From contig JAFDVR010000007.1 in the NCBI GenBank assembly GCA_018268855.1, positions 86,541 through 150,540 of the forward strand: 64,000 bases of DNA, read 5' to 3'. The position numbers and the translations under genes were made by a program. The notes under the pieces are model-generated. The model worked only from the letters and a program-made list of their open reading frames with translations, had not been told where the DNA came from and did not search any database. Positions 14,229-34,656 of the stretch are shown in pieces; position 1 is the stretch's first letter; every line of letters starts with the position of its first letter. Source of the DNA: Acidobacteriota bacterium. GTDB lineage: Bacteria; Acidobacteriota; Terriglobia; Terriglobales; Acidobacteriaceae.

Positions 14229-14283
14229 ATCGATAGCAATCATTAGTAATCGATTGACAGTCCTGTTTCTGGCTTCGTATATT
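14229..14283 (+). promoter_or_regulatory. Promoter with two ATCGAT operator sites, aldolase/MFS unit
   Basis: A TTGACA (14254-14259), 18-bp spacer and TATATT (14278-14283) form a near-consensus sigma-70 promoter for the aldolase gene. Two ATCGAT centres at 14229-14234 and 14249-14254 lie 20 bp apart, two helical turns. The second, inside TAATCGATTGA, overlaps the -35 box, as expected for repression. The same centre occurs in the GntR gene start and at 32356 and 32477/32487. The region also faces the divergent TIM/GH2 unit. GntR binding is inferred. Confidence 0.7.
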
Positions 14284-14333
14284 GGCTCGCAATCCAGAAG
14301 AGAAGCCGAACCCGCAGTTCGCGAGGAGGGGAG

Positions 14334-15335
14334 ATGTCTGCTCTAACGCCCGGCAAAGTTGCCGGACTGAATGCTGTTGCCGACGAACGGGGCGTGATCG
14401 CCGCCGTTGCCATGGATCAGCGAGGTTATTTGAAGCAGATGTTCGTGCGCGAACTGGGGCACGATCCGTCCGACGCGCAGATGTCGGAGTTCAAGGAAGT
14501 GGTGGCGCGTAATCTGACGCGGCATTGCTCCTCCATCCTGCTGGATGTGGAGTATGGGCTGAACGCCACGCGCGAGATCAACGGCAAGGGCCTGCTGCTG
14601 GCGTATGAAAAGGCGGGTTACAGCCCCGACAAGCCGGAGAAGCTGCCGACCGCGACCGAGGGTTGGTCAGCGCTGCGAATCAAGGAAGCGGGCGCGAACG
14701 CGGTGAAGATCCTCGTCTTCTATAACCCGTTTGAAAAAGAATGGGTGAACAACCAGAAGAAGGCATGGGTGGAACGCATCGGTGCGGAGTGCCGCGCGGT
14801 GGATATTCCACTGTTTCTGGAGTTTCTTGGATACGATGTGCACGGCGTGGGCGAAGGCAGCGCAGAGTACGCGAAGCTCAAGCCGGAGATTGTGATTCGT
14901 TCGATCGAGGAGTTTACGAAGGAGCGTTACGGCGCTGACGTGCTGAAGCTGGAAGTTCCGATCCAGATGAACTATGTGGAGGGCGCGAGTTGCTGCAAGG
15001 AACAGCCGGTTTATACGCATGAGGAAGCGATCCAACTCTTCCACAAGGCTGCGAATACAACCGATCTTCCTATCGTGTATCTTTCCGCTGGAGTCACGAG
15101 TGAAGTTTTTGTAGAGACGCTACAAATGGCTGCCGATAGTGGAGTAGCTTTCCACGGCATTCTGGGCGGAAGGGCCATCTGGCAGGACGGTGTTCCGATC
15201 TACGTGAAGAGCGGCGTGGGCGCGCTGGAAGAGTGGATGCGCACTACTGGCGCGCAGAACGTAGAAGACGTAAAGAAGGTGCTGCAGAAAGCGCGCTCGT
15301 GGAAAGAGGCGCGCAGCATGCAGGGACGGGTTTAG
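14334..15335 (+). CDS. LacD-family class I aldolase (candidate sulfofructose-1-phosphate aldolase)
   Basis: A 333-residue aldolase of the tagatose-1,6-bisphosphate aldolase (LacD) family, in the length range of known members. Early MDQRGYLKQMF, the strand SILLDVEYGL, KILVFYNPFE and the Schiff-base strand DVLKLEVPIQM put the catalytic lysine at residue 205, the same number as in characterised LacD. LacD cleaves tagatose- or fructose-1,6-bisphosphate; the E. coli sulfoglycolysis aldolase YihT is from the same family and yields DHAP plus 3-sulfolactaldehyde. There is no lacC or galactose-6-phosphate isomerase nearby, but a PfkA-type kinase and a sulfolactate pathway share its operator. I therefore infer a sulfonated substrate. 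The GAGGAGGGGAG ribosome-binding site is strong. Confidence 0.9.
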   Translation: MSALTPGKVAGLNAVADERGVIAAVAMDQRGYLKQMFVRELGHDPSDAQMSEFKEVVARNLTRHCSSILLDVEYGLNATREINGKGLLLAYEKAGYSPDKPEKLPTATEGWSALRIKEAGANAVKILVFYNPFEKEWVNNQKKAWVERIGAECRAVDIPLFLEFLGYDVHGVGEGSAEYAKLKPEIVIRSIEEFTKERYGADVLKLEVPIQMNYVEGASCCKEQPVYTHEEAIQLFHKAANTTDLPIVYLSAGVTSEVFVETLQMAADSGVAFHGILGGRAIWQDGVPIYVKSGVGALEEWMRTTGAQNVEDVKKVLQKARSWKEARSMQGRV

Positions 15336-15390
15336 CAACAAGCGCGGTGCGCTGCCTGGCAGCGGCAACTTTTTCTCTCAAGGAATGGAT

Positions 15391-16659
15391 ATGCTCGACG
15401 TGCAAACTCCTGTCCAGTCAGAGATGAAGGCCGCGCCCTGGCCGAGCAACCGCAAGCGATGGACGATTGTCGGTCTGCTGTTCACCATCACCGTCATCAA
15501 TCTGATCGACCGGCAGACATTGTCTGTGCTGGCGCCTATTCTTCGGGAAAATTTTCACCTCAGCAATGTGCAGTATGGGCGCATTGTGTCCGCGCTGCAG
15601 TTTGGCATGATGGCAGGCGAGCTGCCGCTCGGCCATCTGATGGACCGCTTCGGCGCGCGCATTGGACTTTCCTTCGCGGTGATGTGGTGGTCCGCCGCAA
15701 CTGCCGCGCAAGCCGCGGCGCGCAGTGGAGGCATGTTCGGCTTTATCCGCTTCTGGATGGGAACAGGAGAGTGCGGCAACTTTTCCGGTGGTGTGAAGAC
15801 GATCGGGCGGCTCTTCTCGCAGCGGGACCGTACGCTTGCCATCGGCATCTTCAATAGCGGCAGTGTGGTGGGATCCACGCTGGCGCCGCCGCTGATCGTT
15901 TATCTGCTGCATCGATACGGCTTTCACGCGGCTTTCCTGGTACCTGCGACATTAGGCCTGCTGTGGGTCCCTGTGTGGTGGTTTGCTTACGGGCGCGAGC
16001 ACAGGCCGGAGCATGTCAGGCGTACGGAAGAGGTATCGGCGCGCACGATGCTGCACGATCCAAATACGTGGGCGCTTATGCTTTGTCGTGGTTTTATCGG
16101 TCCTGTAATGCAGTTTTACTGGTACTGGACGCCGAGTTATCTAGCCAGCGTGCATCATGCTTCCATGCTCCAAATCGGCATGCTGGCATGGATACCATTT
16201 CTATTTGGAGATATAGGTGGCGTCTTTGGAGGATGGTCCGCAGGCAAGTTGCAGCGCCGCGGCATGACCGTTCCCAAGATGCGCAAGCTGCTGATGTTCA
16301 GCAGCAGCCTGGTGTGCCTCACCAGCGCGCTGGTGCCCATGATCTCCGAGGCAGGCATTGCCATGCTGGTGATTGGCATTGCGGTGGGCGCGGACAATTT
16401 TCTGTCCGCGAATATGTTCGCTGCCATCACCGATCTGTTCGAGGACAAGAAGGTGGGCCGCGCATCCGCGTTCATGGGCGTGGCGAGCGGATTGAGCGGT
16501 CTGCTGTTTCCGCTGATTACGGGGCGTCTGGTGGACAAGATTTCGTATACGCCGGTATTTCTGATCGTCGGCCTGATGCCGCTGGTGGGAACTACGTTTC
16601 TGTTCCTGTTCGGACGCCGGTACAAAACCATGCCGCATCCGCACTGGTCGTCCCACTAA
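15391..16659 (+). CDS. MFS anion:cation symporter family transporter (hexuronate ExuT-like)
   Basis: A 12-helix permease of the anion:cation symporter branch. I choose ATG 15391 (MLDVQTPVQS) because AAGGA sits six bases upstream; the ATG at 15385 abuts it. Helix 1 has the ExuT-type segment INLIDRQTLSVLAPIL, loop 2-3 has GHLMDRFGARIG, and the motif FWMGTGECGNFSGGVKTIGRLF is typical of ExuT/GudP permeases for sugar acids. It follows the aldolase by 55 bp under the same promoter. A sugar-acid-type transporter fits uptake of an anionic sugar such as sulfoquinovose; hexuronate is the conservative alternative. It also has a GC-rich hairpin directly after its stop codon (about 16662-16690). Confidence 0.88.
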   Translation: MLDVQTPVQSEMKAAPWPSNRKRWTIVGLLFTITVINLIDRQTLSVLAPILRENFHLSNVQYGRIVSALQFGMMAGELPLGHLMDRFGARIGLSFAVMWWSAATAAQAAARSGGMFGFIRFWMGTGECGNFSGGVKTIGRLFSQRDRTLAIGIFNSGSVVGSTLAPPLIVYLLHRYGFHAAFLVPATLGLLWVPVWWFAYGREHRPEHVRRTEEVSARTMLHDPNTWALMLCRGFIGPVMQFYWYWTPSYLASVHHASMLQIGMLAWIPFLFGDIGGVFGGWSAGKLQRRGMTVPKMRKLLMFSSSLVCLTSALVPMISEAGIAMLVIGIAVGADNFLSANMFAAITDLFEDKKVGRASAFMGVASGLSGLLFPLITGRLVDKISYTPVFLIVGLMPLVGTTFLFLFGRRYKTMPHPHWSSH

Positions 16660-17215: not shown

Positions 17216-20200
17216 TTAGAACTCGAGTTTGAGTGCGAGTTGCAGCTGACGGGGAGCGTCCGAACTTGTGATCTTGCCGAAGTTAGCGGCGTTGATGCTG
17301 CCGTTCGGATTACCGAGGTTGGTGTTGTTCATTAGATTGAATGCTTCAGCGCGGAAGAGCAGGTTCATACGTTCGTAGATCTCAAAACGTTTGAATGCCG
17401 ATGCATCCGTACGTATCGTACCTGGCCCGATGAGCGGGTTGCGCGGACTCGTGCCATAGAGCTGGCGAACTCCGTTAACCATGGTGGTCGGCACGTTTTG
17501 AAATGCTGCGGTGTTGAAGTATTGATTGATCTTCTCCAGTTTGGACCGGCTATTCAGCAGATGCGGATTACCCACCAGATTTGGACGATCTGAACCAGAC
17601 AATCCATCTAGATTCGAATCGGTGGCAGACAGCACATTGAACGGTTGGCCGCTTGCGAGTGTCTGGATGGCATTGATTTGCCATCCGCTCAGGATTTCCT
17701 TGCCAAAGAGACCCCATTTTTTTACAGAAGGTAACTGATACAACACGGAGGCTACAAACTTCTGCGGCAGATGATAGTTTGAGAGGCCCTTATCAAGCGA
17801 GGCATCGTAGTTGTTGACGAGGTTCCAGGTGGTGGCGCTGCCCGGATCGCCTGAAGCGATATCGAGCGCCTTGGACCACGTATACGCAGCCTGCACGGCA
17901 AAGTTATGCAACATGCGGCGCGTGGCCGTGAGTTGCAAGCCGTTGTAGGAGGAGTTGCTAATGGGATCCAGCATGGCAATGTTCGAGGTATAGCCGTATG
18001 CTGTGCTTGCATTCATCGTGTTATATGGACGGCGCGATGCAACATTTGCTGACGCCGTCGATGAACATGGCGTAGTTGAGGTACCCGGGCAGAAGCCAGG
18101 GATGTAGACCGGGGCGTTCTGATCGCGATTCAAATAGAACCGACGACCGAGCGTACCTACATATGCCATGCGAGTGCTCCAGTTGGCACCGTACTGCTGT
18201 TCCAATGTGAGGTTGAACTGTTGTACGTACGGCACAGCCGACGTGTTCGGACGAATGCCTGCAAACTGGGCGCTTTTATTGAACTTTGCGTTGGCCGGAT
18301 CGGGTACATAAGGGTATGGGCTACCTGTTGGAAAGGCTGCTTGCCCCGCATAAGGGTTGGCATAGGAAGTGGTGTTGGTAACCGAAACAGCGAGAGCAAA
18401 AGGCTGCCCTTCGAGATTGCCAACGAAGGGTTCCTGACTAAACGAGTAGAAGACGCCGTAGCCGCCGCGCAGGGCCGTACGTCCAGTCCCGAAGATGTCC
18501 CACGCAAAACCTATGCGCGGAGCGAACTTCAAATAAGACGGGCTAATAAGACCCTCGGGAACGCCGGGATCACCTTCAAAGACAAGGCCTGTAGGAGCTG
18601 TTGGGAACCGCGTGGACTGTTTACCAGGAATAAAGGTGCCAAAATTCTTCTGTCCGACGAACGGATAGAAGACTTCCCATCGCACGCCGCCATTCACAGT
18701 AAACCGACGGGAGACACGCCAAGTATCGTGCACGAATAACGACGGATCATTGAAGTGCAGACGATGCAGCGACCCATTATTCTGCTGGAAGTTATTTGCC
18801 CGCCCCAGCAGAAAGTCGGCAAATGCATTTCCATTAGCGGCTGAGCCATTTCCAGTTTGCGCGCCGGTAAAGCTGGCGGTTGACTGGGAAAGAAATGCGG
18901 CCGTCTCCTGATATTTATTGAAGATGAATGATCCGCCGAATTTCAATCCATGATTTCCAAGCGTCCAGTTGACGGTATCCTGAAGCCCTGTTGAAAGCTG
19001 AGAGGTATTATTTGGACGTCCACCACCGCCAGAGAAATATCCGGTAATACTGAACTGCGGCTGGGTCTGGAGCGCGCCACCATAAGGAAACGCAAAGCCA
19101 AGATCGGACAGTAAGGGCGTGCTGTAGATGTTCTGCAGGATGCTTTTGTTCAACGTGTAGAAAACCGTTGCTGTGTTCACCATGGTTGGACTAATGGTCC
19201 ATGTTTCACCCAAGATGTAGTTCGTTTGACCAGCATATGTCGATGCCCCAGCAAAGTTCAGTAACTGATTGGAGTTTTGCGTGCGGTTATAACCAGTGCC
19301 TTGTGAGTTGAAGTAAGTAAATCGAATTTGATTAGCTTGATTCCATTGATAATCCAGCCGTCCTGTGCCTTGGTTTGCAATAGTAGGACTTGGGGCTGTT
19401 TGCTGGGCGGGGGCAGTCCCATTTGGATCCGTGGGATGTGGCACATAGGCGAGGATTGCCTTGGCAGCTGGATCGATGGCATTCGGGCAAATCTTAGGTG
19501 CGGTCGCAGTTCCACAATTCGTGCCCGGAGGCAAAAATTTTGGAATCTTCGTGCTTGTAGAGAAATCTCCTGCTCTCTCCGCCTCTGTGGGCACAACCAT
19601 TGCGGACGAGGTGATCACGGTCTGCTGATGAATGCGGATTCCCTGGTAGTTGCCGAAGGCGAAGAGCTTGTCCTTCAACAGAGGTCCGCCAAGACCACCT
19701 CCGAAGACGTTGTAGATATATTGCACCGGCGCTCCAGGTGCCTGGAAATAAGGTTTGCCATTTAGAACCTGATTGCGCAGATAGTCATATGCCGAACCGT
19801 GGATTTTATTGGTACCTGATCGTGTGACTGTGTTGACGACAGCTCCGGGATAACGGCCGAACTCCGCATCGTAGTTGCTGGTGATGATGCGGAACTCTGC
19901 CAGAGCATCGGGAGCGGGAGCGACGTTGCCGCCGCCGCGGTAAAACTCTGTATTGAACGCGCCGTCGAGATAAAAGGTATTGAAGTTCGGTCGTGTGCCG
20001 TTGGTAGAAAACTGGGTTCCGCTGGTATCACCGATTTGCGCAGAGGCGTTGTAGTTGGTGACGCCAGGTACCAGCGTCACCAGATCATATGCATTACGGC
20101 CAATCAGCGGAAGATCAACGATGCGTTTCTGATCGATCGTCTGTGCCAGTTGCGATTCGCGCGTATCTACGAGGGCCGCCGTAGCGTCGACGCTCACCTC

Positions 20201-20596
20201 CGTACTTACCTCGCCTGGTTTCATCGAAAAGCTGGCGTTCACGTTCTGGTTGGCAGAGAGGCGGAGATCGTTCTGCGTCATGGTCTGAAAGCCCGCCATC
20301 GTCGCTGTGGCCTTGTAGGTGCCAGGATTGACTACGGGAAATACGAAGGTGCCAGAGTTGTCGGTTTTGGCGGTCAGCGTGTCATTGGTTCCGACGTTGA
20401 CGATGGTGACGGTTGCACCTGGAATGGATGCGCCGGTGGGGTCGGTAATGGTGCCGTATATGGAACCGGTTACAGATTGGGCATGCAGAACCGTGGCGCC
20501 GCAGAGCGTGAGTGCTACCAGAAGCGCGATGGCAAATCTGCCAGAGAGCAGATGCCGGACCGCCGTGGTTCCAGATTTTCTAAGTGTGTGATCCAT
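17216..20596 (-). CDS. Oar-like TonB-dependent receptor
   Basis: A 1126-residue outer-membrane receptor. Signal peptide at about 15-40 (ALTLCGATVLHAQ). A carboxypeptidase-regulatory-like domain follows (GTITDPTGASIPGATVTIVN, about 45-125), then a plug domain with RIVDLPLIGRNAYDLVTLVPG and a long beta-barrel ending in the aromatic-terminated strand LQLALKLEF. Acidobacteria carry many such receptors for complex nutrients and sugars. The GGAGG ribosome-binding site is 10 bases upstream. It has its own promoter with a 20-bp palindrome near 20808. Its position beside the transporter and sulfonate genes makes it a candidate route for sulfonated glycosides across the outer membrane, but nothing in the protein shows the ligand. 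Confidence 0.9.
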   Translation of the reverse strand: MDHTLRKSGTTAVRHLLSGRFAIALLVALTLCGATVLHAQSVTGSIYGTITDPTGASIPGATVTIVNVGTNDTLTAKTDNSGTFVFPVVNPGTYKATATMAGFQTMTQNDLRLSANQNVNASFSMKPGEVSTEVSVDATAALVDTRESQLAQTIDQKRIVDLPLIGRNAYDLVTLVPGVTNYNASAQIGDTSGTQFSTNGTRPNFNTFYLDGAFNTEFYRGGGNVAPAPDALAEFRIITSNYDAEFGRYPGAVVNTVTRSGTNKIHGSAYDYLRNQVLNGKPYFQAPGAPVQYIYNVFGGGLGGPLLKDKLFAFGNYQGIRIHQQTVITSSAMVVPTEAERAGDFSTSTKIPKFLPPGTNCGTATAPKICPNAIDPAAKAILAYVPHPTDPNGTAPAQQTAPSPTIANQGTGRLDYQWNQANQIRFTYFNSQGTGYNRTQNSNQLLNFAGASTYAGQTNYILGETWTISPTMVNTATVFYTLNKSILQNIYSTPLLSDLGFAFPYGGALQTQPQFSITGYFSGGGGRPNNTSQLSTGLQDTVNWTLGNHGLKFGGSFIFNKYQETAAFLSQSTASFTGAQTGNGSAANGNAFADFLLGRANNFQQNNGSLHRLHFNDPSLFVHDTWRVSRRFTVNGGVRWEVFYPFVGQKNFGTFIPGKQSTRFPTAPTGLVFEGDPGVPEGLISPSYLKFAPRIGFAWDIFGTGRTALRGGYGVFYSFSQEPFVGNLEGQPFALAVSVTNTTSYANPYAGQAAFPTGSPYPYVPDPANAKFNKSAQFAGIRPNTSAVPYVQQFNLTLEQQYGANWSTRMAYVGTLGRRFYLNRDQNAPVYIPGFCPGTSTTPCSSTASANVASRRPYNTMNASTAYGYTSNIAMLDPISNSSYNGLQLTATRRMLHNFAVQAAYTWSKALDIASGDPGSATTWNLVNNYDASLDKGLSNYHLPQKFVASVLYQLPSVKKWGLFGKEILSGWQINAIQTLASGQPFNVLSATDSNLDGLSGSDRPNLVGNPHLLNSRSKLEKINQYFNTAAFQNVPTTMVNGVRQLYGTSPRNPLIGPGTIRTDASAFKRFEIYERMNLLFRAEAFNLMNNTNLGNPNGSINAANFGKITSSDAPRQLQLALKLEF

Positions 20597-20780: not shown

Positions 20781-20827
20781 AGTATAGGCAGATGTGAAAA
20801 ACGTTGTCAATCTATTTCAATAGATTG
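20781..20827 (-). promoter_or_regulatory. Receptor promoter with 20-bp palindromic operator
   Basis: On the minus strand TTGACA (20810-20805), an 18-bp spacer and TATACT (20786-20781) form a strong promoter about 180 bp upstream of the receptor start. Its -35 box overlaps the perfect inverted repeat CAATCTATTTCAATAGATTG at 20808-20827 (9-bp arms, 2-bp centre). The repeat is a likely operator; its core differs from the ATCGAT sites of the neighbouring regulon. Confidence 0.7.
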
Positions 20828-26797: not shown

Positions 26798-26812
26798 GGA
26801 ACCCGCCACTCC

Positions 26813-27976
26813 TTATGCGCTGCGATACAGCTTGGTCATCACAAACTCGCGATGGCCGAGGGCCTCCGCTGCCGTTAGGCGTCCGTTGGCGGTGCGCACC
26901 ACCATGTCCAGAAGCGCGTCACCGGCCTCGTCGATGGTCATCTCGCCCTGCAAGATCTTCGACACATCCACATCGATGTGTTCGGACATCGTCGCCACCG
27001 TCTTCGGATTGCCGGAGAGCTTGATGACTGGTTCAATCGGATTGCCGATGACGTTGCCCTGTCCTGTGGGGAAGAGATGAATCACCGCTCCAGATGCGGC
27101 CCACAGTGTAACTGCTTCTGCCGCAGCACTGGAGGTATCCATAAACCAAAGGCCCGGCTTGGTGGGCGCAACCGCAGGAGGAAGGCAGCCGACGAACTTC
27201 GTCTTCTTGCCCAGCTTCTCCACGTTGCCCAGCGCCTTCTCTTCAATCGTCGTCAGGCCGCCGGCGATGTTGCCCTTCGTCGGTTGCGACTCAGACAGAT
27301 CGTTCTTCTTCTGATCGAAGACGAGTTTTGTGTAGTCCTCAAATGCTGCGAAAAAGTCTTTGCGCACCTGCTCGTCCGCAGCCTTTGCGGCCACAATGTG
27401 TTCCGCGCCGGTGAGTTCGCTCGTTTCGCCAAAGGAGGCCGTGCCGCCCATTGCGCAGTGCTTGTCGATCACGTTGCCCACGGTGGGGCAGCTTGCCAGT
27501 CCGGTCGTCGTGTCGCTCTCGCCGCACTTCACGCTGATATACAGCTCATGCAGATCGCACTCGGTGCGCTGCAACTCCGACGCCCACTGCACAAACTCCT
27601 TCGCCTTGTATGAAGCATCGGCGATGGTCCGGATGTCGCCCTTGCCTTCAATGGAGAAGCCCGCGACGGGCTTGCCTGTTTTGGCAATGCCATCCACGAT
27701 GCGCTTCGTCCATCCCGCTTCAATGCCGATCACGATTACAGCGGCAACATTGGGGTTGGAGCCCGTGCCGATCATCGTGCGGAAGTGCAACTCCAGATCT
27801 TCGCCAAACTGCAAACGTCCATACGCGTGCGGCAGCGCGAGCGTGCCTTTGATGTTGTTGCCCACCGCCTCGCAGGCAGCGTTGGAGATATCGTCCACCG
27901 GCAGAATGATGACATGGTTGCGCACGCCTACGCGCCCGTTTTCGCGCCTGTAGCCAAGAACCTTGCGCTGTGCCAT
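26813..27976 (-). CDS. suyB: UxaA-family lyase large subunit, SuyB-like ((2R)-sulfolactate sulfo-lyase)
   Basis: A 387-residue protein starting at ATG 27976 ([20 protein letters not shown]). The frame stays open upstream, but that extension overlaps suyA in another frame and has no domain. It belongs to the altronate/galactarate dehydratase C-terminal family but lacks the N-terminal SAF domain, which is a separate gene, as in SuyA plus SuyB. Where UxaA has SHTYGCSQLG this protein has [13 protein letters not shown], without the cysteine. [20 protein letters not shown] and the ending [13 protein letters not shown] also match my recollection of SuyB. SuyAB splits (R)-sulfolactate into pyruvate and sulfite. 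Altronate or galactarate dehydratase is the alternative. Confidence 0.82.
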
Positions 27977-28257
27977 TATGCCCACCTCGTCGTCTTCAGA
28001 TTGTGTGTGTGAACGTGGTGCCCAGCTTTGACCGGCTGCACGATCGTGCCGATCGGGCAAGCATACTTGGTCACCACATCGCCCACGGCAAAGTCCTTCA
28101 GCGCCAGCTTGTGGCCCAGCGGAATCGCCTCTTCCGACTTCGCCTTCAGCGAAGAGTTGTCGGACAGAATGCGGCCTGTGCAATCGATGCCCGGCTCCAA
28201 ATCCACCACGGCAACGCCAACGTTGTCCTCTGGATCGTGTACTAAAAAATGAATCAT
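27976..28257 (-). CDS. suyA: SAF-domain small subunit, SuyA-like
   Basis: A 93-residue SAF-domain protein, about 10 kDa, the size of the small subunit of (2R)-sulfolactate sulfo-lyase. It has the pattern [18 protein letters not shown], then [25 protein letters not shown] and the ending [14 protein letters not shown]. The HN(L/V)KTxRW tail is, from memory, typical of SuyA, whereas E. coli UxaA continues from HAHNTRTNL into its large domain. The stop TAA overlaps the start of the large subunit (TAATG). It lies 39 bp downstream of the aldehyde dehydrogenase. Confidence 0.82.
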
Positions 28258-28296: not shown

Positions 28297-29739
28297 CTAT
28301 ATCGCTCCGAGGGAGACGTGCTTTGTCTCAAGAAATGCGTCGAGTCCTTCGTATCCAAGCTCGCGTCCCCAGCCGCTTTCCTTTACGCCGCCAAAGGGAG
28401 CCGTGCTCGTAGTGGGCGCGCCGTCGTTGATACCAATCGTGCCTGCCTCCATCTGTTCGCTGAGGCGGAAGATGCGGGCCATATCACGCGTCATCGCATA
28501 GGCGCTCAGGCCATACTCCGATGCGTTCGCGCGCCGGATGCCTTCCTCTTCCGTCTCAAAGCTCCCAAGCGGCGCAATGGGCGCGAAGGTCTCTTCGCAC
28601 ATGCAGGCTGCGGAGTCGCACACGTTCTCCAGCACCGTGGGCTGCAGAAAAAATCCGGCGGAATCCTTCACGCGTTCGCCACCGGCAAGCACGCGCGCGC
28701 CTTTCGATACGGCATCGTGAATCTGCGCAAGCGCACCGTCGAGTGCGGTCTGGTTCACCACCGGGCCAACATCCATGCCGGGCTGAAGTCCATCGCCTGT
28801 CTTCAACTTCGCAACGGCGGCGCAGAAGCGCTCGACGAACTCTTTGTAGATGCCCTTCTGCACGTAGATGCGATTCGCGGCGATGCATGACTGGCCGGTG
28901 TTGCGGAACTTCGCGATGATCGTCTCGCGCACGGCAACATCCAGATCGCAGTCATCGAATACGAGCACAGGTGCGAGGCCGCCGAGTTCGAGGCAGAGCG
29001 GCTTGATCTTGTCCGCCGCCGCGCGAATGAGCGACTGGCCCACGCGCGTCGATCCGGTAAAGCTAATCTTGCGGCAGATGGGATTGCCCACGAACTCGTT
29101 TGAGATCATTGCAGCATCGCCGATGACAAGCTGAAACACTCCCGCAGGAACACCTGCGGCCTGCATACATTCAGCAAGCAGCACGCAGGAGATCGGCGTC
29201 TGGCTCGCGGGCTTCAGCACTACCGGACATCCCGCGGCCAGGGCTGGAGCGGCCTTGCGGACGGAGAGAACAAGCGGAAAGTTCCACGGCGCAATCGCAC
29301 CCACAACACCAATGGGGGTCTTCACCACCAGATTGCGTTTGCCGTTGACCTGCGGCGGAATCACGCGGCCATACACGCGGCGCGCTTCTTCGGCGAACCA
29401 GCGCAGATGGTCCTCCGACATGTTTACTTCGCCTTCGCTCTGCGCGAGTGGCTTGCCGTTCTCCAGCGTGATGGCGCGCGCGATCTCGGCTTTGCGGCGT
29501 ACCAGTTCGTCCGCAACGCGATGCAGAAACGCGCCTCGCTCTTTCGCCGATTTTGCCCGCCACTCATGGAACGCAGCGGCAGCGTTGTCCATCGCGCGCT
29601 TCAGCATTGCGGCGTCGATCTTCGACACTTCGGCAAACGGCTGCGCGGTTGCAGGATTTACTACCTGCATCGTGTCTTCCGTGTAGACCCATTCGCCCCC
29701 GATGTATGAGCCGTAGTTGCGGGCTGCGTTCTCCGCCAT
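28297..29739 (-). CDS. NAD(P)-dependent aldehyde dehydrogenase (candidate sulfolactaldehyde dehydrogenase)
   Basis: A 480-residue soluble aldehyde dehydrogenase in the succinate-semialdehyde dehydrogenase (GabD) group. Motifs: [21 protein letters not shown] (cofactor region), [13 protein letters not shown], catalytic Glu251 in LELGGLAP and nucleophile Cys285 in [14 protein letters not shown]. The sulfolactaldehyde dehydrogenase of the Pseudomonas sulfo-Entner-Doudoroff pathway is also GabD-like. Placed between an isomerase/kinase pair and suyAB, it would oxidise 3-sulfolactaldehyde from the aldolase to (S)-sulfolactate. AGGAGAAGGC precedes the start. Oxidation of succinate or 2-oxoglutarate semialdehyde is the fallback. 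Confidence 0.92.
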
Positions 29740-29768: not shown

Positions 29769-31121
29769 TCAGCCGTGCCAATCCAGTTTCAACAGGCGCG
29801 CGAACCGCTGCAGCACGTCTGCGTTGCGCCCGTAGTGCAGTGTTACGTGGTGCGGCAGGCCCGCGTGCAGCAGCCGCTCAAATCGTGCGTATACATCGCC
29901 ACCGTCTACCTGCACCAGCAGACTGTTGCCGCTCACGTGGCGGCGCGGCGGAATCGCATCGCCTTCCAACGCGGCGAGGTGGTAGCGGTTGTCGCAGCGC
30001 CACAACCGCGAAATAGTCACAGGCGATCCCGTCTGCAACTCGCCGTCTACAACAGAAGGACGTGCGCCGTTGAAGTGCTCGCCCAGCGACGGCCCCTGCT
30101 CGCAACCCACGGCGTTGCACATATCCAGCGGCGCCATGCCCGGATGCCAGAAGAACGCCGTCTCATCGTCGTGCTCCAGCCAGTCCGTAAGAAATCCAAT
30201 GCCAATGCCGAGCAGGCTTGTCACCAGCCCCGAGAGCGCGCCGTCCACATCGCCTTCAATCGAAACAGGCGTGCCTTCTGCGGTCAGTCGCGAGACAGCA
30301 AGATACGGCCAGTGGCCGAGCATGTTTGGCAGCTCAGGCCAGCATTGCAGCGCAAGTCCTTGCAGGCTCATCTCCGCCATCAGGTCTTTCATGGCGAGAT
30401 AGAAGCGCGAGTTCATCTCCAGCATCTCGTCGGGCGCGGCATCTTTTCCGCCGGTGATGGGCAGCTTGAGCGCGCGGGCGATCTTGAGGTCTTCCGCTAC
30501 GCGGTCTTCCGCAATCTCGCGTACGCGATCGATGAACTGCGGCAAGCTGAGTGAGTGCATCTGCAAGCCGAAGGTCTGGCGGATAAGGAATGGGTCGGCG
30601 GCGAGATCGATGAAGCCGGGCACGTGCGTTCCGATCACGCCGAGCTTTGCACGGCGCAGGCGCTGCACCGTGGCGCAGAGGGCGACGGCGCGCTTCAATG
30701 AATCGGCAATCTCCTCCGGTGCTCCATAGACAAACTCAAACGGCCGCTGCGCCTGCCGGTAGATCGATGCCCACAGATGCTGGCCGACCAGAGCGCAGGA
30801 GCTTACTTTGCCGTCGCCGGGCCGTTCGGGCGTGCCCCACAGGATGACGGGATCGCTCCAGCGCTGGCTCACCGTAAAGGCGAACTGCCCGTCAGCGATG
30901 GAGGGTTGAATCACTACCAGAGCGTTGCACTGTGCGGCTTCGATCTCGTCCATCGCGGTGTTCACCGTCTGATCGTCGTTCACGATGCGGTCCGCGCCGA
31001 TGCATTGGAAGCCGCAGCCTTTCATCGCTGCAATGGCGCGCTCGCGAATCTCGCGGCTCCACTCCTGATCGAACCCTGGACGTTTGCGGCTGAAGATCAG
31101 CACGCCCACTTTCATCGTCAT
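29769..31121 (-). CDS. L-fucose/L-arabinose isomerase-fold sugar isomerase (candidate sulfoquinovose isomerase)
   Basis: A 450-residue protein of the L-fucose isomerase-like family. The N-terminal alpha/beta domain holds VGVLIFSRKRPGFDQE and the loop NALVVIQPSIADGQ. The C-terminal part has the metal-site segments LQCWPELPNMLGHWPYLAVS, IEGDVDGALSG and FFWHPGMAPLDMCN, with Glu, Asp and His as likely ligands. The start ATGA overlaps the stop of the kinase gene, so the two are translationally coupled. In sulfo-EMP2 and sulfo-transaldolase pathways, isomerases of this fold (SqvD-type, from memory) convert sulfoquinovose to sulfofructose. Coupling to a fructose-6-phosphate-kinase homologue supports an aldose-to-ketose step, not a fucose pathway. 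Confidence 0.85.
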   Translation of the reverse strand: MTMKVGVLIFSRKRPGFDQEWSREIRERAIAAMKGCGFQCIGADRIVNDDQTVNTAMDEIEAAQCNALVVIQPSIADGQFAFTVSQRWSDPVILWGTPERPGDGKVSSCALVGQHLWASIYRQAQRPFEFVYGAPEEIADSLKRAVALCATVQRLRRAKLGVIGTHVPGFIDLAADPFLIRQTFGLQMHSLSLPQFIDRVREIAEDRVAEDLKIARALKLPITGGKDAAPDEMLEMNSRFYLAMKDLMAEMSLQGLALQCWPELPNMLGHWPYLAVSRLTAEGTPVSIEGDVDGALSGLVTSLLGIGIGFLTDWLEHDDETAFFWHPGMAPLDMCNAVGCEQGPSLGEHFNGARPSVVDGELQTGSPVTISRLWRCDNRYHLAALEGDAIPPRRHVSGNSLLVQVDGGDVYARFERLLHAGLPHHVTLHYGRNADVLQRFARLLKLDWHG

Positions 31122-32323
31122 TGCACACCCACTTTCGATTGCACGCCTGGAAATCCAGAAATAAATGGCGTGAGTTCGCCGATGAGCGGCGAAAGATATT
31201 CGCGAAATCTGTCATTGACCGCCAGAGGCCCATCGCTGAGCCACTCCGCTGGTATCGGATGCTCGTGCCCGGCGACAGCTTCCAGATCGACAAGACCCGT
31301 TCCGGCGCCGCCCGACTCGTCCAGAGGAAGCAGAGTCACCATCTTGTCGGTTTCGCCGCGCGCGAGCGACTGCACAGCCGCGCGGCCAACAGCCTCGGCG
31401 TCGGCGAGATCTTGTCTGGAGACGAGCGCGACGGAGCAGCGGCCAAGCAGTCCCGGCTTTTCGCTGCGGCAGCGGATGCCGAGGTTTTCCGCCACGAAAT
31501 CGGCAAGATGCTGGCCGACGCCGCTGGTCATGGGACGCTTGAGGGGATCGGCCTGCGCCGCCGAAACGGTCTCAAACACCAGTTTGCCCGCGGCATCGCG
31601 AATGCCTTCTGAGACCACAACCACGGCCCAGCCGTGCTTTCCGACTATCCGGTCCAGGTCGCCTAGAAACGCAGATCGGTCAAAGGGGAGCTCCGGCACA
31701 TAGACAAGGTGAGGAGCATCGCCGCTGTCGGCAATCGCAAGCGTGGACGCGGCGGCGAGCCAGCCAACATTGCGCCCCATCGTTTCCAGTACCGTGACCG
31801 GCTGCGGAAGCGAGCGAAGATCGGCCCCCAGCTCGCGGGTGGCCTGCGCGATGTAGCGGGCCGCGCTCGCGTATCCGGGGCAACGGTCCGTTTCGGCAAT
31901 ATCGTTGTCCACCGTCTTCGGAACGCCGATGGCCTGAATGTCCATGCCGGCGGCTCGGCAGTAGGTGGTGACGATCTGCGCGCCGCGCATGGTGCCGTTG
32001 CCGCCCATGAAGAGGAGATAACGGACGTCCAGTTGCTTCAGGGTATGGACGATGCGCTCCATCTCCTCGTCCGAGGGTTTGTGGCGGGAGGAGCCGAGGG
32101 CCGCTCCGGGACTGTTCCGCAGCAGGTTGAGCTGGTGAGTGTCGAGACCGGTCAGGTCGGCTATGTCATTTTCCACCAGACCTTTTACCCCAAACCGCGC
32201 ACCAAAGATGCTGCCGATGACGGTGTGCCTGCGGGCCTCCTGGAGCGCGGCGCTCAGGCTTGCGTTGAAGACCGCAGTCGGTCCTCCGCCCTGGATCACC
32301 ATCAGGTTTGCGGATGCAGGCAT
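31118..32323 (-). CDS. 6-phosphofructokinase-family kinase (candidate sulfofructose 1-kinase)
   Basis: A 401-residue PfkA-superfamily kinase, longer than the roughly 320-residue bacterial PfkA. The phosphate-donor loop is QGGGPTAVFN (11-20) and GGNGT (107-111); the catalytic loop is PKTVDND (135-141), and MGRNVGWLA is at 182-190. Gly110 is the ATP-type residue, whereas Lys136 in PKT is typical of PPi-dependent enzymes, so the donor is ambiguous. PFK phosphorylates C1 of fructose-6-phosphate; sulfofructose carries a sulfonate where that phosphate sits, so this family is chemically suited to make sulfofructose-1-phosphate. It is the first gene of the sulfonate operon, translationally coupled to the isomerase. 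A second housekeeping PFK elsewhere cannot be excluded. Confidence 0.92.
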   Translation of the reverse strand: MPASANLMVIQGGGPTAVFNASLSAALQEARRHTVIGSIFGARFGVKGLVENDIADLTGLDTHQLNLLRNSPGAALGSSRHKPSDEEMERIVHTLKQLDVRYLLFMGGNGTMRGAQIVTTYCRAAGMDIQAIGVPKTVDNDIAETDRCPGYASAARYIAQATRELGADLRSLPQPVTVLETMGRNVGWLAAASTLAIADSGDAPHLVYVPELPFDRSAFLGDLDRIVGKHGWAVVVVSEGIRDAAGKLVFETVSAAQADPLKRPMTSGVGQHLADFVAENLGIRCRSEKPGLLGRCSVALVSRQDLADAEAVGRAAVQSLARGETDKMVTLLPLDESGGAGTGLVDLEAVAGHEHPIPAEWLSDGPLAVNDRFREYLSPLIGELTPFISGFPGVQSKVGVQ

Positions 32324-32349
32324 AGGTACTCTCTCTGTAGAGTCCGCAG

Positions 32350-32377
32350 CCTATAATCGATTGTGAATGATTGTCAA
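32350..32377 (-). promoter_or_regulatory. Sulfonate operon promoter with ATCGAT operator
   Basis: On the minus strand TTGACA (32377-32372), a 16-bp spacer and TATAGG (32355-32350) lie 27 bp upstream of the kinase gene start. The spacer holds ATCGAT at 32356-32361, directly next to the -10 box, so a bound regulator would block RNA polymerase. Confidence 0.65.
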
Positions 32378-32473: not shown

Positions 32474-32521
32474 GCAATCGATTAGCATCGATTGACATCT
32501 CTCCGGCGCGCTGCCTATAGT
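32474..32521 (+). promoter_or_regulatory. Promoter with two ATCGAT operators, TIM/oxidoreductase unit
   Basis: TTGACA (32492-32497), an 18-bp spacer and TATAGT (32516-32521) precede the TIM-barrel gene. ATCGAT centres at 32477-32482 and 32487-32492 are exactly 10 bp apart, one helical turn, and the second overlaps the -35 box. The layout repeats that at 14229-14283. Confidence 0.7.
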
Positions 32522-32560
32522 TCTCCAGGAACAAATTGAGGGCGTGGAGGTATGGCGCGC

Positions 32561-33460
32561 ATGGCGATGGTGAGCCGCAGAGAAATGGTGCAGGGCCTGG
32601 CCGCGATGGCTGCATACGGTGCAGCTTCAGCAAAAGGCATTGCTGCGCCGGCGGGAGGGCACCCGGGTATCCGTTTTGGAGTGCAGTTGAATGCTTTTCC
32701 CATCAATCCGGAGAAGTTCGAAACGTTTCTGGATACCCTGGCCGAGGTGAAGCGGATTGGCTATCAGGGTTTTGAAAGCAGTTTCCGAAATGTGATGCCG
32801 CAATTCGGCTCCCCCGCAATGGCACGCCGCAAGATTGAGGCAAGCGGGCTGACATTTGTGGGCGTCCATATCTTTCTGCCGAATGAGAAATATGACCCTG
32901 TGACCAAATTTGCGCCGAAGGAGCTTTACCAGAAGGTCGCCCGCGGAGGAGCTTCGCTGGGTGCGAAGTATCTCATCGTGAGTGGATTACCGGTTGCGAA
33001 CGAGCGTGAACTGAAGCAAAAGATTGATGGATTGAACGAGGCGGGGCGGTTTGCGAAGTCGGCAGGCATCCGGCTGGCGTATCACAATCATTGGCCGGAG
33101 TTTCAATCGAAGGTGGGGCCAAAGGGCGAGATTGAGGCCCTCTATACGGAGACCGATCCGTCCGTAGTTTCGTTTGTGCTGGATGCGGGACACGCCTATC
33201 GCGGAGGGGCCGATGTGCCTGCCTTTATCCGGAAACATTCAAAACGTATCGTCGCATTTCACTTTCGCGATTACCGCAACGGGCGCCTGGTATCGCTGGG
33301 GCAGGGCACGTTTCCTATCCGGCAGGTTGCGGAGACGATTAAACAGATTGGATGGAAGGGCTGGGTCGAGAACGAAGAGGAGCGCGAAGATCTTTCCAAA
33401 ACCGGAGCCCAGGTAATTGAACCAGCTTACAAAGCCTTGAAGGAGGCCTTCTCTCGATGA
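32561..33460 (+). CDS. Tat-exported xylose isomerase-like TIM-barrel protein (3)
   Basis: A 299-residue protein starting at ATG 32561, ten bases after GGAGG; the ATG at 32552 is only one base from it. The Tat motif is SRREMVQGLAAMAAYG. The barrel has the strands GIRFGVQLNAFPIN, YQGFESSF, RLAYHNHWPEF, SFVLDAGHAYRGG and RIVAFHFRDYRNG, giving a probable metal site of Glu, His and Asp residues. It is paralogous to the protein at 13274-14140. It overlaps the oxidoreductase gene by four bases and shares the operator-bearing promoter divergent from the sulfonate operon. It probably acts on a keto-glycoside intermediate in the periplasm; the reaction is not established. Confidence 0.86.
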   Translation: MAMVSRREMVQGLAAMAAYGAASAKGIAAPAGGHPGIRFGVQLNAFPINPEKFETFLDTLAEVKRIGYQGFESSFRNVMPQFGSPAMARRKIEASGLTFVGVHIFLPNEKYDPVTKFAPKELYQKVARGGASLGAKYLIVSGLPVANERELKQKIDGLNEAGRFAKSAGIRLAYHNHWPEFQSKVGPKGEIEALYTETDPSVVSFVLDAGHAYRGGADVPAFIRKHSKRIVAFHFRDYRNGRLVSLGQGTFPIRQVAETIKQIGWKGWVENEEEREDLSKTGAQVIEPAYKALKEAFSR

Positions 33461-34656
33461 ACCGCCGTGAATTTCTCCAGGCAGGGGCTGCCGTGGCAGC
33501 CACCAGTGGAATGACTGCCCGTTCCTACGCCGCGATTGTGGGTGCGAACAGCCGTGTGCAACTCGGCATTGCCGGACTGGGACGCAGAGCTGTGGTGGTG
33601 ATGCGCGGCGGATTTACCAAAGATGCGCGCGTGCAGGTTGCCGGACTTTCGGACGTGTATGACAAACAGGCGCAGGACTTTCAGAAGAAGTTCAACCTGG
33701 CGAGCGTACCCGTAGATGTGGACTACCGGCGTCTGATCGATCGCAAGAATATCGATGCAGTCTTTATTGCAACACCCGATCATCTGCATGTGCAGATGGC
33801 GCACGACACGCTCGCGGCGGGCAAGCATACCTATCTGGAGAAGCCGACGCTGCATCGCTGGCACGAGCGCGAGACGCTGGTGAAGGCCGCCGCCGATCAT
33901 CCAAAACAGGTTTTGATGTGCGGCATGCAACAGCGCAGCGGAGCGCATTACAAGCGCATCAAGCAGGAGTATTTCGATACCGGAAAACTCGGCGATGTGG
34001 TGCTGGTGCGCGCCATCTGGAACAACTTTTCATGGCAGCGCAGAGTGATTCCGAATGAGCCGAAACCTGCGGGATTGAACTGGGACCTCTTCCTCGGGCC
34101 GGCACCCAAGGTGCCATATGAGACGGCACGTTATTCCTCGTGGCGCTCATATCACGACTACGGCAATGGTGTGCTTGCGGACATTCTGACGCACTGGGTG
34201 GATGTTGCGCAGTGGATGCTGAACGACGATAAGCCGCAGCAGGCCGCAGCATTGGGCGGTGACTACCAGTTGCACGATGGCCGCGATAATCCGGACACGG
34301 TGAGCGCCATTATTAAGTACGGGAAGTGGAACCTCAACTTTGAATCCTCTGTGCTTTCGATCCGCGATCAAAAGCCACCTTCGGTTTTCTTTGAGGGGAC
34401 TGAGGGAACCCTTGATGTGACGCGCGGTGGATTTACCTTTTCACCGAATAAAGGTGAGGAAACCACGTTCAAGTCTGGCGAAGATCTGGAGCAGGCGCAT
34501 GTAAAGAACTTTATCGATGCAGTGACTACGGGGAGCAGCCTGAACGCGCCGTTGTCTGTGGGGTTGGCGGCGACGGTTCCGGTGGAGATGGCGCTGGCTT
34601 CGTATTGGGGGAAGAAGATCGCTACGCCGAAGGATTTGGATGGGACGAACGTTTGA
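33457..34656 (+). CDS. Tat-exported Gfo/Idh/MocA-family oxidoreductase (candidate NAD-dependent glycosidase)
   Basis: A 399-residue NAD(P)-binding protein with a Tat signal (MNRREFLQAGAAVAATSG), meaning it is folded with cofactor before export. The Rossmann motif is GIAGLG (37-42), the signature EKP is at 128-130, and the C-terminal substrate domain has DILTHWVDVAQWML with a likely catalytic histidine. Some members are glycosidases that use NAD as a catalytic cofactor through a 3-keto intermediate (GH109, and the NAD-dependent sulfoquinovosidases of GH188). Given its regulation with the sulfonate operon, cleavage of sulfoquinovosyl glycosides is an attractive guess. A 3-keto-sugar dehydrogenase is the conservative one. 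Confidence 0.9.
   Translation: MNRREFLQAGAAVAATSGMTARSYAAIVGANSRVQLGIAGLGRRAVVVMRGGFTKDARVQVAGLSDVYDKQAQDFQKKFNLASVPVDVDYRRLIDRKNIDAVFIATPDHLHVQMAHDTLAAGKHTYLEKPTLHRWHERETLVKAAADHPKQVLMCGMQQRSGAHYKRIKQEYFDTGKLGDVVLVRAIWNNFSWQRRVIPNEPKPAGLNWDLFLGPAPKVPYETARYSSWRSYHDYGNGVLADILTHWVDVAQWMLNDDKPQQAAALGGDYQLHDGRDNPDTVSAIIKYGKWNLNFESSVLSIRDQKPPSVFFEGTEGTLDVTRGGFTFSPNKGEETTFKSGEDLEQAHVKNFIDAVTTGSSLNAPLSVGLAATVPVEMALASYWGKKIATPKDLDGTNV

What the first reader, a model, noticed from the sequence alone, without database searches (positions are those of the whole stretch)
14229..34656. Candidate complete sulfoquinovose-to-pyruvate pathway with desulfonation in an acidobacterium-like genome
The window shows, in one putative regulon: PfkA-family kinase, FucI/AraA-fold isomerase, LacD-family aldolase with Lys205, GabD-like aldehyde dehydrogenase, SuyA- and SuyB-like subunits, two 2-hydroxyacid dehydrogenases of opposite families (Ldh/ComC and SlcC type), an ExuT-like symporter, and a YeiH-type exporter. 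Established knowledge: sulfo-EMP pathways use isomerase, kinase, YihT/LacD-type aldolase; SlcC plus ComC invert sulfolactate; SuyAB releases sulfite. Inference: here one organism performs the whole route, which usually is split between partners, and uses a PfkA-type kinase for the phosphorylation step. I know of no described acidobacterial example.
Basis: partly seen in the sequence, partly recalled or inferred. Interest (0 to 1): 0.95.

Follow-up and report, generated by a model that had tools for sequence, protein, structure and literature searches.

The report
One-operon sulfosugar mineralisation in Acidobacteria
A soil acidobacterium carries a nine-gene run, plus neighbouring genes that share its DNA control site, whose enzymes are predicted to take the plant sulfosugar sulfoquinovose all the way to central-metabolism carbon and sulfite inside one cell, a job usually thought to be split between two kinds of bacteria.

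Summary
The genes are all there. A minus-strand run (32323 to 22984) encodes a PfkA-family kinase, a FucI/AraA-fold isomerase, a GabD-type aldehyde dehydrogenase, SuyA, SuyB, ComC- and SlcC-like dehydrogenases, a propeller protein and a GntR regulator. Beside it lie a LacD-type aldolase with an MFS transporter, a SusC-like receptor and a secreted TIM-barrel/Gfo pair. (2) SuyB falls with sulfolactate lyases, away from altronate/galactarate dehydratases. (3) Of 397 genomes of the order, 32 carry the isomerase and 31 of those also SuyB. (4) The kinase clade has a rebuilt C6-phosphate pocket. Best reading: a hybrid sulfo-EMP route (SqvD-like isomerase, SqiK-like kinase, class I aldolase) continued by SlcC/ComC/SuyAB to sulfite. 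Corrections: PfkA-family sulfofructose kinases (SqiK) are known; SuyAB/ComC/SlcC were already reported in acidobacterial MAGs; extended routes are described for Thermotogae and Chloroflexi. No known sulfoquinovosidase was found. All substrates are inferred. New variant of a known kind.

The parts
9890..12376 (-). GH2 glycoside hydrolase with a signal-like N-terminus; possible member of the regulon through the divergent palindrome
   Evidence: PF02836 105 bits, PF18565 113 bits; same-strand run with the two genes above it
12404..13270 (-). TIM-barrel (AP_endonuc_2) protein; possible member of the regulon
   Evidence: PF01261 34 bits
13274..14140 (-). TIM-barrel (AP_endonuc_2) protein with signal-like N-terminus; starts about 97 bp from the palindrome at 14237
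   Evidence: PF01261 82 bits; best solved relatives 3cny, 8tct, 4kw2, 8tcs, 8tcd
14237..14256 (.). operator-like palindrome, CAATC..T....A..GATTG, between the aldolase unit and the divergent TIM-barrel/GH2 unit
   Evidence: 0 mismatches; one of only three exact copies in the genome
14334..15335 (+). class I LacD-type aldolase, predicted sulfofructose-1-phosphate aldolase; Schiff-base lysine Lys205
   Evidence: PF01791 125 bits, NF009498 399 bits over cut-off; homologue in 13 of 29 acidobacterial loci
15385..16659 (+). MFS transporter, predicted sulfosugar or sulfonate symporter
   Evidence: PF07690 177 bits; TIGR00893 180 bits, below cut-off
17216..20596 (-). SusC/TonB-dependent-type outer membrane protein, predicted sulfosugar (glycoside) uptake
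   Evidence: PF25183 690 bits, CarboxypepD_reg 74 bits; palindrome about 210 bp upstream
20808..20827 (.). palindrome copy upstream of the outer membrane receptor
   Evidence: 0 mismatches
21011..21907 (-). LysR-family regulator divergent from the exporter, predicted sulfite/sulfonate sensor
   Evidence: PF03466 177 bits, HTH_1 74 bits
22001..22987 (+). YeiH-type predicted sulfite/sulfate exporter
   Evidence: PF03601 171 bits over cut-off; TIGR00698 102 bits below cut-off
22984..23718 (-). GntR/FCD regulator, last gene of the operon; candidate binder of the palindrome
   Evidence: PF07729, PF00392; homologue in 19 of 29 acidobacterial loci
23747..24748 (-). YncE-like beta-propeller protein, role unknown
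   Evidence: gap of 28 bp to GntR and 34 bp to the SlcC-like gene
24783..25736 (-). SlcC-like D-2-hydroxyacid dehydrogenase, predicted (S)-sulfolactate dehydrogenase
   Evidence: PF02826 214 bits; 44% identical to the hydroxyacid dehydrogenase near SuyAB in Rhodococcus koreensis
25739..26809 (-). ComC-like Ldh_2, predicted (R)-sulfolactate dehydrogenase
   Evidence: PF02615 387 bits; best NCBIfam model NF040650 L-sulfolactate dehydrogenase, 274 bits, below cut-off 500
26813..27976 (-). SuyB, large subunit of predicted (R)-sulfolactate sulfo-lyase
   Evidence: PF04295 113 bits, PF20629 282 bits; SuyB clade in tree
27976..28257 (-). SuyA, small SAF-domain subunit (93 aa)
   Evidence: PF08666 22.6 bits, cut-off 21; 45-49% identical to the small subunits beside three proteobacterial SuyB
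28297..29739 (-). GabD-type aldehyde dehydrogenase, predicted sulfolactaldehyde dehydrogenase; Arg161, Arg279, Cys285, Trp152-Asn-Phe
   Evidence: PF00171 548 bits; motifs align with those around RlGabD Arg171/Arg289/Cys295, but E. coli SSADH has them too
29769..31121 (-). SqvD/SftI-like isomerase, predicted sulfoquinovose-to-sulfofructose isomerase; candidate metal ligands Glu289, Asp313, His424
   Evidence: NF048012 175 bits; fold; the three residues invariant in 17 of 17 aligned rows
31118..32323 (-). PF00365 kinase, predicted ATP-dependent sulfofructose 1-kinase; the only PF00365 match in the genome
32354..32373 (.). palindrome copy (one mismatch) upstream of the nine-gene operon
32475..32494 (.). 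palindrome copy upstream of the TIM-barrel/Gfo pair
   Evidence: 0 mismatches
32552..33460 (+). TIM-barrel (AP_endonuc_2) protein with an N-terminal signal-like stretch; candidate keto-glycoside lyase
   Evidence: PF01261 87 bits; best solved relatives 8tcd, 3cny, 8tcs, 8tct
33457..34656 (+). Gfo/Idh/MocA oxidoreductase with a Tat-like signal, candidate glycoside 3-dehydrogenase
   Evidence: PF01408 63 bits; PF10518 TAT_signal 21.6 bits, cut-off 22.7; NF058561 glycoside 3-dehydrogenase 125 bits, cut-off 750; best solved relatives 8tdf, 8tdh

Best explanation
This is a gene set, tied together by one operon layout and one shared operator-like palindrome, that likely lets a single acidobacterium degrade sulfoquinovose completely to central-metabolism carbon and sulfite by a hybrid sulfo-EMP pathway followed by sulfolactate desulfonation. 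Predicted steps: the outer membrane receptor and MFS protein would take the sugar in; the FucI/AraA-fold isomerase would turn sulfoquinovose into sulfofructose; the PfkA-family kinase would phosphorylate C1 with ATP; the LacD-type class I aldolase would split sulfofructose-1-phosphate into DHAP and (S)-sulfolactaldehyde; the GabD-type dehydrogenase would oxidise that to (S)-sulfolactate; the SlcC-like and ComC-like enzymes would invert it through sulfopyruvate to (R)-sulfolactate; SuyAB would release sulfite and pyruvate; the YeiH-type protein, next to its LysR regulator, would export sulfite or sulfate. Shown by sequence: the genes, their families, the layout, the palindrome, the co-occurrence and the SuyB clade. 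Inferred: every substrate, the transport roles, the regulator that binds the palindrome. Known pieces are SqvD/SqiK, GabD-type SLADH and SlcC/ComC/SuyAB; new is their union with a LacD-type aldolase in Acidobacteriaceae.
For: Families and models of each product. Palindrome: three exact copies in 3.52 Mb, all here, reversed-pattern control 0, plus a one-mismatch copy before the operon; 28 copies with at most one mismatch in 453 kb of 29 acidobacterial loci against a mean of 0.2 in plainly base-shuffled sequence, found in 16 of the 29 loci. Order PFK-ISO-(GntR)-ALDH-SuyA-SuyB-ComC-SlcC: 19 of 29 loci hold all seven enzyme genes; eight of the other ten end at a contig end inside or next to the run. 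The same run, with an exact palindrome copy before the kinase, is in G129 (L195), whose contig length equals that of Edaphobacter acidisoli (P0036). Of 397 genomes of the order 38 have SuyB and 32 the isomerase; 31 have both, on one contig in 27 of the 31, within 4.2 kb in 25, the window's genome included. SuyB clade 100/99 apart from UxaA/GarD. Kinase: in 34 of 34 rows grouped by hand as the clade (two rows are one gene) Gly stands at E. coli position 104, Pro for Arg162 and Leu for His249, while Asp127, Arg243 and Arg252 stay; the 30 best-scoring PF00365 loci of relatives have Asp, Arg and His in 30 of 30. Eight more loci, all Planctomycetota or Verrucomicrobiota, hold isomerase, dehydrogenase, SuyAB, ComC and SlcC without this kinase; a transaldolase-family gene recurs in 14 of the 30 other loci.
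Against: Isomerase, ComC-like and YeiH-like proteins score well below their curated cut-offs. Four genomes of the same genus have a kinase of the same clade (about 50% identical) without isomerase (E 1e-60) or SuyB (E 1e-80), and the two surroundings read (L175, L178) show no link to sulfonates, so the rebuilt pocket is no proof of a sulfosugar. Gly at position 104 also occurs in four acidobacterial PFK rows outside the clade (L185, L186, L191, L192). LacD-type aldolases are widespread (299 of 397 genomes at E 1e-80). 13 of 29 loci show no copy of the palindrome (some lack the upstream stretch). No YihQ-, YihR-, YihS-, YihU- or YihV-like gene was found by BLASTP in the 59 loci (the window itself was not in that database). 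The aldehyde dehydrogenase cannot be told from a succinate-semialdehyde dehydrogenase by the known residues. 0 of 17 other genomes of the genus carry SuyB or the isomerase at those limits. The window's YeiH and, but for one locus, LysR have no counterpart within the 29 loci. No expression or activity data.
Confidence: 0.75

Rival explanations
1. The sugar is another C6-sulfonate, above all sulfofucose (6-deoxy-6-sulfo-D-galactose): isomerised to sulfotagatose, phosphorylated, and cut by a tagatose-bisphosphate-type aldolase to the same sulfolactaldehyde, with the same lower pathway.
For: The aldolase's best models are tagatose-1,6-bisphosphate aldolases; an alpha-galactosidase-type (Melibiase_2) gene family lies within the fetched flanks of the isomerase in 8 of 59 loci; an EMP-like sulfofucose route was considered, and not supported by the data, for Paracoccus.
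Against: The isomerase's best curated model is sulfoquinovose isomerase. LacD-type enzymes split both fructose and tagatose bisphosphates (recalled). PMC12421959 calls sulfofucose documented in only two reports, while sulfoquinovose is made at about 10 billion tons a year (PMC10755693 abstract). No Melibiase match among the window proteins scanned.
Confidence: 0.12
2. Two separate functions share the place: a sulfolactate-mineralising block (SlcC, ComC, SuyAB) and a sugar block (isomerase, kinase, aldolase) for a non-sulfonated sugar phosphate.
For: Seven of 38 SuyB genomes lack the isomerase; kinase-clade members occur without SuyB in four congeners.
Against: The genes are one run with overlaps or gaps of at most 39 bp; 31 of 32 isomerase genomes have SuyB; the same isomerase family sits with SuyAB in Planctomycetota and Verrucomicrobiota beside a different C-C cleaving enzyme.
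Confidence: 0.08
3. The kinase is a pyrophosphate-dependent phosphofructokinase doing ordinary glycolysis, as its automatic family name says; it is the only PF00365 protein of the genome.
For: NF010675 (diphosphate-fructose-6-phosphate phosphotransferase) 408 bits, over its cut-off of 273; nearest solved relatives 3k2q/3hno are PPi-PFKs; single copy.
Against: Gly in place of the PPi-type Asp, loss of the Arg162 and His249 equivalents, operon and palindrome with SuyAB. Ten of 18 congeners searched have no PF00365 gene at all, so the genus does not need one.
Confidence: 0.05

Closest known systems
Sulfo-EMP2 pathway (SqvD, SqiK, SqiA; Bacillus urumqiensis, Megamonas rupellensis), from passages of PMC9594981 and PMC12890257
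   Same: FucI-family isomerase, PfkA-family (PF00365) kinase, same intermediates, GabD/SlaB-type oxidation
   Different: Class I LacD-type aldolase (PF01791) instead of class II SqiA (PF01116); acidobacterial; no SqvB (PF16161) or GH31 match among the window proteins scanned; continues to sulfite
Sulfo-EMP pathway (YihS, YihV, YihT)
   Same: Class I aldolase of PF01791
   Different: Isomerase and kinase belong to other families; no YihS/YihV hit in 59 loci; the aldolase matches YihT at only 36 bits
Extended sulfo-TAL pathway with SuyAB (Thermotogae, Chloroflexi), PMC9594981 section 11
   Same: Sulfoglycolysis plus SuyAB in one cluster
   Different: Transaldolase there, kinase plus aldolase here
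Tandem sulfofucolytic-sulfolactate sulfolyase pathway, Paracoccus wurundjeri, PMC12421959
   Same: SlcC/ComC/SuyAB lower half in the same organism
   Different: Entner-Doudoroff-like upper half; other sugar
suyAB, comC, slcC of peatland acidobacterial MAG SbA5, PMC6018796
   Same: Homologous lower half (SuyB 85% identical); same gene order in L048
   Different: The paper holds no mention of sulfoquinovose (0 occurrences); the kinase and isomerase next to those genes are seen

Membership tests
SuyAB (R)-sulfolactate sulfo-lyase | SuyB groups with sulfolactate-linked SuyB, apart from altronate/galactarate dehydratases | tested here: met
   100/99 support, branch 3.49; 68% identical to SuyB beside hpsN/hpsO. 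The tool warns of long outgroup branches
SuyAB (R)-sulfolactate sulfo-lyase | Separate small SAF-domain subunit directly upstream | tested here: met
SuyAB (R)-sulfolactate sulfo-lyase | Releases sulfite from (R)-sulfolactate | not testable with these tools
   needs enzyme assay
Sulfo-EMP2 | SqvD-type FucI-family isomerase | tested here: inconclusive
   NF048012 175 bits full length, cut-off 700 not reached; fold AraA/FucI
Sulfo-EMP2 | PF00365 kinase next to the isomerase | tested here: met
   a direct comparison with B. urumqiensis SqiK was not made, its sequence was not among the hits seen
Sulfo-EMP2 | Class II aldolase SqiA (PF01116) in the cluster | tested here: not met
   the aldolase is PF01791
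Sulfo-EMP (E. coli type) | YihS and YihV homologues | tested here: not met
   window isomerase and kinase belong to other families; no BLASTP hit at E 1e-3 in 59 related loci
Sulfolactaldehyde dehydrogenase (GabD/SlaB) | PF00171 with the two proposed sulfonate arginines | tested here: inconclusive
   Arg161 and Arg279 present, but also in succinate-semialdehyde dehydrogenase
SlcC/ComC sulfolactate inversion pair | Two dehydrogenases of PF02826 and PF02615 beside SuyAB | tested here: met
   40-44% and 33-35% identical to the pair near SuyAB in Sinorhizobium mexicanum and Rhodococcus koreensis
Sulfoquinovosidase GH31 or GH188 | A member in the regulon | tested here: inconclusive
   GH31: matches only on other contigs of the genome, distant from YihQ (25% over 377 residues; 33% over 102), none in the 59 loci. 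GH188: its 8QC entries are not among the best 60 of 66 PDB matches of the Gfo protein

The most novel reading that the evidence does not exclude
Acidobacteriaceae run a complete, single-cell sulfoquinovose mineralisation regulon with its own entry chemistry: secreted TIM-barrel proteins and a Gfo dehydrogenase, under the same palindrome, free sulfoquinovose from sulfolipid glycosides by 3-oxidation and beta-elimination instead of a GH31 or GH188 sulfoquinovosidase; and in peat MAG SbA5 the sulfite made from the sugar feeds the cell's own sulfite respiration, so one plant lipid would supply carbon and electron acceptor to one bacterium.
Probability: 0.2. Interest if true: 0.78.

Novelty: new variant of a known kind. 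Interest (0 to 1): 0.57.

Why it matters
[quoted passage not shown] If the route works, sulfite would be released in the primary degrader and not in a partner, and the suyAB/comC/slcC genes once reported in the sulfite-reducing peat MAG SbA5 would gain an upstream sugar source. The kinase clade gives a testable sequence signature (Gly, Pro and Leu at E. coli PfkA positions 104, 162 and 249; EKPGLxxR) for finding such clusters, and Edaphobacter acidisoli appears to be a named species with the whole run.

Tried and rejected
PPi-dependent kinase: the family name suggests it, but all 34 clade rows carry the ATP-type glycine. The meaning of residues 104, 124, 127, 162, 243, 249, 252 in E. coli PfkA, and of the FucI metal ligands, is recalled and comes from no call. 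Eight intermediate rows were looked at apart: Gly in four, Asp in four; Pro for Arg162 in seven.

Aldolase specificity sites: only three other LacD rows were at hand, one of them (L079, 50% identical) from a sulfo-cluster locus itself; three positions differed (114, 151, 201), too few rows to use. The aldolase near the run in Edaphobacter acidisoli is only 47% identical, so the aldolase is less uniform than the other enzymes.

GH27-like (Melibiase_2) genes near the isomerase, 8 of 59 loci: kept only as part of the sulfofucose rival.

Sulfite oxidation: two PF00174 matches elsewhere in the genome, one clear, not identified further; sulfite fate left open.

Gfo protein as GH188: not supported by the PDB list. 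The 3-oxidation/elimination idea rests on the nearest solved relatives and recalled work on Bacteroides glycoside 3-dehydrogenases; a literature search for that work found nothing useful. Only 4 of 29 acidobacterial loci have the Gfo homologue and 8 of 29 an AP2 hit, five of these eight only at 25-32% identity.

The 29 'acidobacterial' loci are those with an isomerase at least 54% identical; seven more distant loci titled Acidobacteria or Terriglobia (37-43%) were counted with the 30 others. Two of the 29, L032 and L043, lack SuyB although about 10 kb downstream is held; their match coordinates equal those of G416 and G121, where SuyB lies on another contig and 17.7 kb away.

Full report
What is there. 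On the minus strand, nine genes run from 32323 to 22984: PF00365 kinase, isomerase, aldehyde dehydrogenase, SuyA, SuyB, ComC-like, SlcC-like, a propeller protein and a GntR regulator. Neighbouring frames overlap by up to four bases or leave gaps of at most 39 bp, so they look like one transcription unit (inference). On the plus strand lie the LacD-type aldolase and an MFS transporter (14334-16659); on the minus strand a SusC/TonB-dependent-type receptor (17216-20596); then a LysR gene divergent from a YeiH-type exporter; and beyond the kinase, divergent from it, a TIM-barrel protein and a Gfo/Idh/MocA oxidoreductase with a Tat-like signal (32552-34656).

One regulon. Reading the intergenic stretches showed a palindrome, CAATCNNTNNNNANNGATTG. 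It occurs at 14237-14256, 20808-20827 and 32475-32494 without mismatch, and with one mismatch at 32354-32373; shuffled windows gave a mean of 0.18 matches with one mismatch allowed, none of 100 reaching four. In the whole 3.52-Mb genome the exact pattern has three sites, all these; the reversed control pattern has none. Across 29 related acidobacterial loci there are 28 copies with at most one mismatch in 453 kb, against 0.2 in base-shuffled sequence; they fall in 16 of the 29 loci, in nine of them within 450 bp upstream of the kinase and in six upstream of an aldolase gene; two of the 28 lie just inside an aldolase gene. The site at 14237 also lies about 97 bp from the start of a divergent run of two TIM-barrel genes and a GH2 gene (14140 to 9890; an MFS and a TonB gene follow), which may therefore be under it too. 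Which regulator binds the palindrome is not known; the GntR protein is the candidate.

Organism. The genome is 3.52 Mb in 20 contigs, 99.98% complete. The few named isomerase relatives are Acidobacteriaceae. A congener's contig (G007:C1, 2,052,489 bp) has the length of the contig behind the protein named Terriglobus sp. RCC_193 (P0149), so the window most likely comes from the genus Terriglobus (inference).

Upper pathway. The isomerase's best curated model is sulfoquinovose isomerase (NF048012, 175 bits, cut-off 700; L-arabinose isomerase follows at 23 bits). Its predicted fold is that of AraA/FucI, and Glu289, Asp313 and His424 are invariant in 17 of 17 aligned rows. The kinase belongs to a clade in which 34 of 34 rows (grouped by hand; two rows are one gene) have Gly at E. 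coli PfkA position 104, Pro for Arg162 and Leu for His249; the 30 best-scoring PF00365 loci of relatives have Asp, Arg and His there. By recalled knowledge of PFK these are the phosphoryl-donor switch and two C6-phosphate contacts, so an ATP-dependent enzyme with an altered C6 pocket is the natural reading. It is the genome's only PF00365 match. Against over-reading: four congeners carry a kinase of this clade without isomerase or SuyB, and Gly104 also occurs in four acidobacterial PFK rows outside the clade. The aldolase is class I, LacD type, with Lys205; the genome has four PF01791 matches, and two genes match the aldolase at E 1e-80, the window's own included.

Lower pathway. The aldehyde dehydrogenase keeps both arginines proposed to bind sulfonate in RlGabD (PMC10599462, passages), but so does E. 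coli SSADH. SlcC- and ComC-like enzymes sit next to SuyAB, as the (S)-to-(R) inversion requires (PMC9594981). SuyB groups with SuyB of Cupriavidus pinatubonensis that neighbours hpsN and hpsO; outgroups are UxaA, GarD, and Metabacillus and Haladaptatus proteins. Paracoccus versutus has an annotated putative sulfate exporter next to SuyAB, about 28% identical to the window's over 223 residues.

Distribution. A scan of one genome per species for the isomerase gave 59 loci. Of 29 close acidobacterial ones, 28 have the kinase, 23 the dehydrogenase, 21 SuyA and SuyB, 20 ComC and SlcC, 19 GntR, 13 the aldolase, 11 the MFS, and 19 all seven operon enzymes. One is MAG SbA5 (L048), for which suyAB, comC and slcC and a capability for sulfite reduction were reported (PMC6018796, passages); kinase, isomerase, dehydrogenase, aldolase and MFS lie in the same 21 kb. 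G129, whose contig length equals that of Edaphobacter acidisoli (3,211,950 bp), has kinase, isomerase, GntR, dehydrogenase, SuyA, SuyB, ComC and SlcC in one run, 62 to 93% identical, with exact palindromes near the kinase and near the MFS/aldolase. In 397 genomes of the order, SuyB (E 1e-80) is in 38 and the isomerase (E 1e-60) in 32; 31 have both, one (67% complete) only the isomerase, seven only SuyB; 27 of 31 have both on one contig, 25 within 4.2 kb. None of 17 other genomes of the genus has either, so the cluster is patchy: gained or lost. Planctomycetota and Verrucomicrobiota carry the isomerase with SuyAB, ComC, SlcC and the dehydrogenase but without this kinase (eight loci); a transaldolase-family gene is found in 14 and a class II aldolase in 17 of the 30 other loci, which resembles the extended sulfo-TAL route.

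Literature. Sulfo-EMP2 and the PF00365 kinase SqiK: PMC9594981, passages and section 11. Hybrid sulfo-EMP1/2 combinations are said to occur in Proteobacteria and Actinobacteria: PMC12890257, passages. Coexistence of sulfosugar cleavage and desulfonation in one bacterium is called unusual: PMC12421959, discussion part 1. Searches listed no paper on this route in Acidobacteria; some searches showed only part of what matched (30 of 36, 20 of 21, 20 of 5,184, 15 of 381). I saw passages, and for two papers one section each, of eleven papers. The original ACS Catalysis report of sulfo-EMP2 was not read.

Entry step. No GH31 or GH188 sulfoquinovosidase was found in the regulon. The TIM-barrel/Gfo pair has as nearest solved relatives sugar phosphate isomerase-like proteins and dehydrogenases whose entries run in one series (8tc and 8td; 8tdi is named glucuronide-3-dehydrogenase), and a further TIM-barrel protein on the other side of the 14237 site has relatives in the same series. 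That suggests, but does not show, glycoside opening by 3-oxidation and elimination; this is the basis of the novel case.

Verdict. It is a new variant of a known kind of pathway, in a phylum where my searches showed no report of it.

Noticed in passing
L093 (Candidatus Chlorohelix allophototropha plasmid NZ_CP128401.1, 66362-87687): An isomerase (NF048012, 343 bits) beside a PF00365 kinase, a succinate-semialdehyde-type dehydrogenase, a phosphoglycerate dehydrogenase-type gene, a nitrite/sulfite reductase and siroheme genes: a candidate sulfosugar cluster on a plasmid with its own sulfite reduction.
   Followed up: partly
L101 (Zymomonas mobilis ZM4 plasmid pZZM402, 1-9436): Isomerase (NF048012, 288 bits) with class II aldolase, aldose epimerase, Gfo/Idh/MocA oxidoreductase, MFS and TonB receptor, no kinase listed in the stretch: possible uncharacterised sulfosugar cluster.
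   Followed up: no
L064, L069, L074, L076, L077, L078, L083, L085: Planctomycetota/Verrucomicrobiota loci with SuyAB, ComC, SlcC, dehydrogenase and isomerase; in L077 a 221-aa gene of the transaldolase cluster sits between SlcC and the dehydrogenase. Looks like extended sulfo-TAL in further phyla.
   Followed up: partly
L175-L178 (four genomes of the window's genus): Kinases of the sulfo-cluster clade without isomerase or SuyB; neighbours read are a SIS-domain and a GDP-mannose dehydratase-type gene (L175) and a transglutaminase-like and an amidohydrolase gene (L178). Substrate unknown.
   Followed up: partly
window 34983-36125: An M24 metallopeptidase-family gene whose homologue recurs in five of the 29 acidobacterial loci and in Edaphobacter acidisoli (L195); in L035 and L195 a palindrome copy lies upstream of that homologue.
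   Followed up: partly
L179 (G041:C5:113000-119500): A kinase of the intermediate type (GGND) next to a Cgl0159-like gene and a transporter-like frame, on the contig that also holds SuyB about 13 kb and an isomerase about 25 kb away.
   Followed up: no
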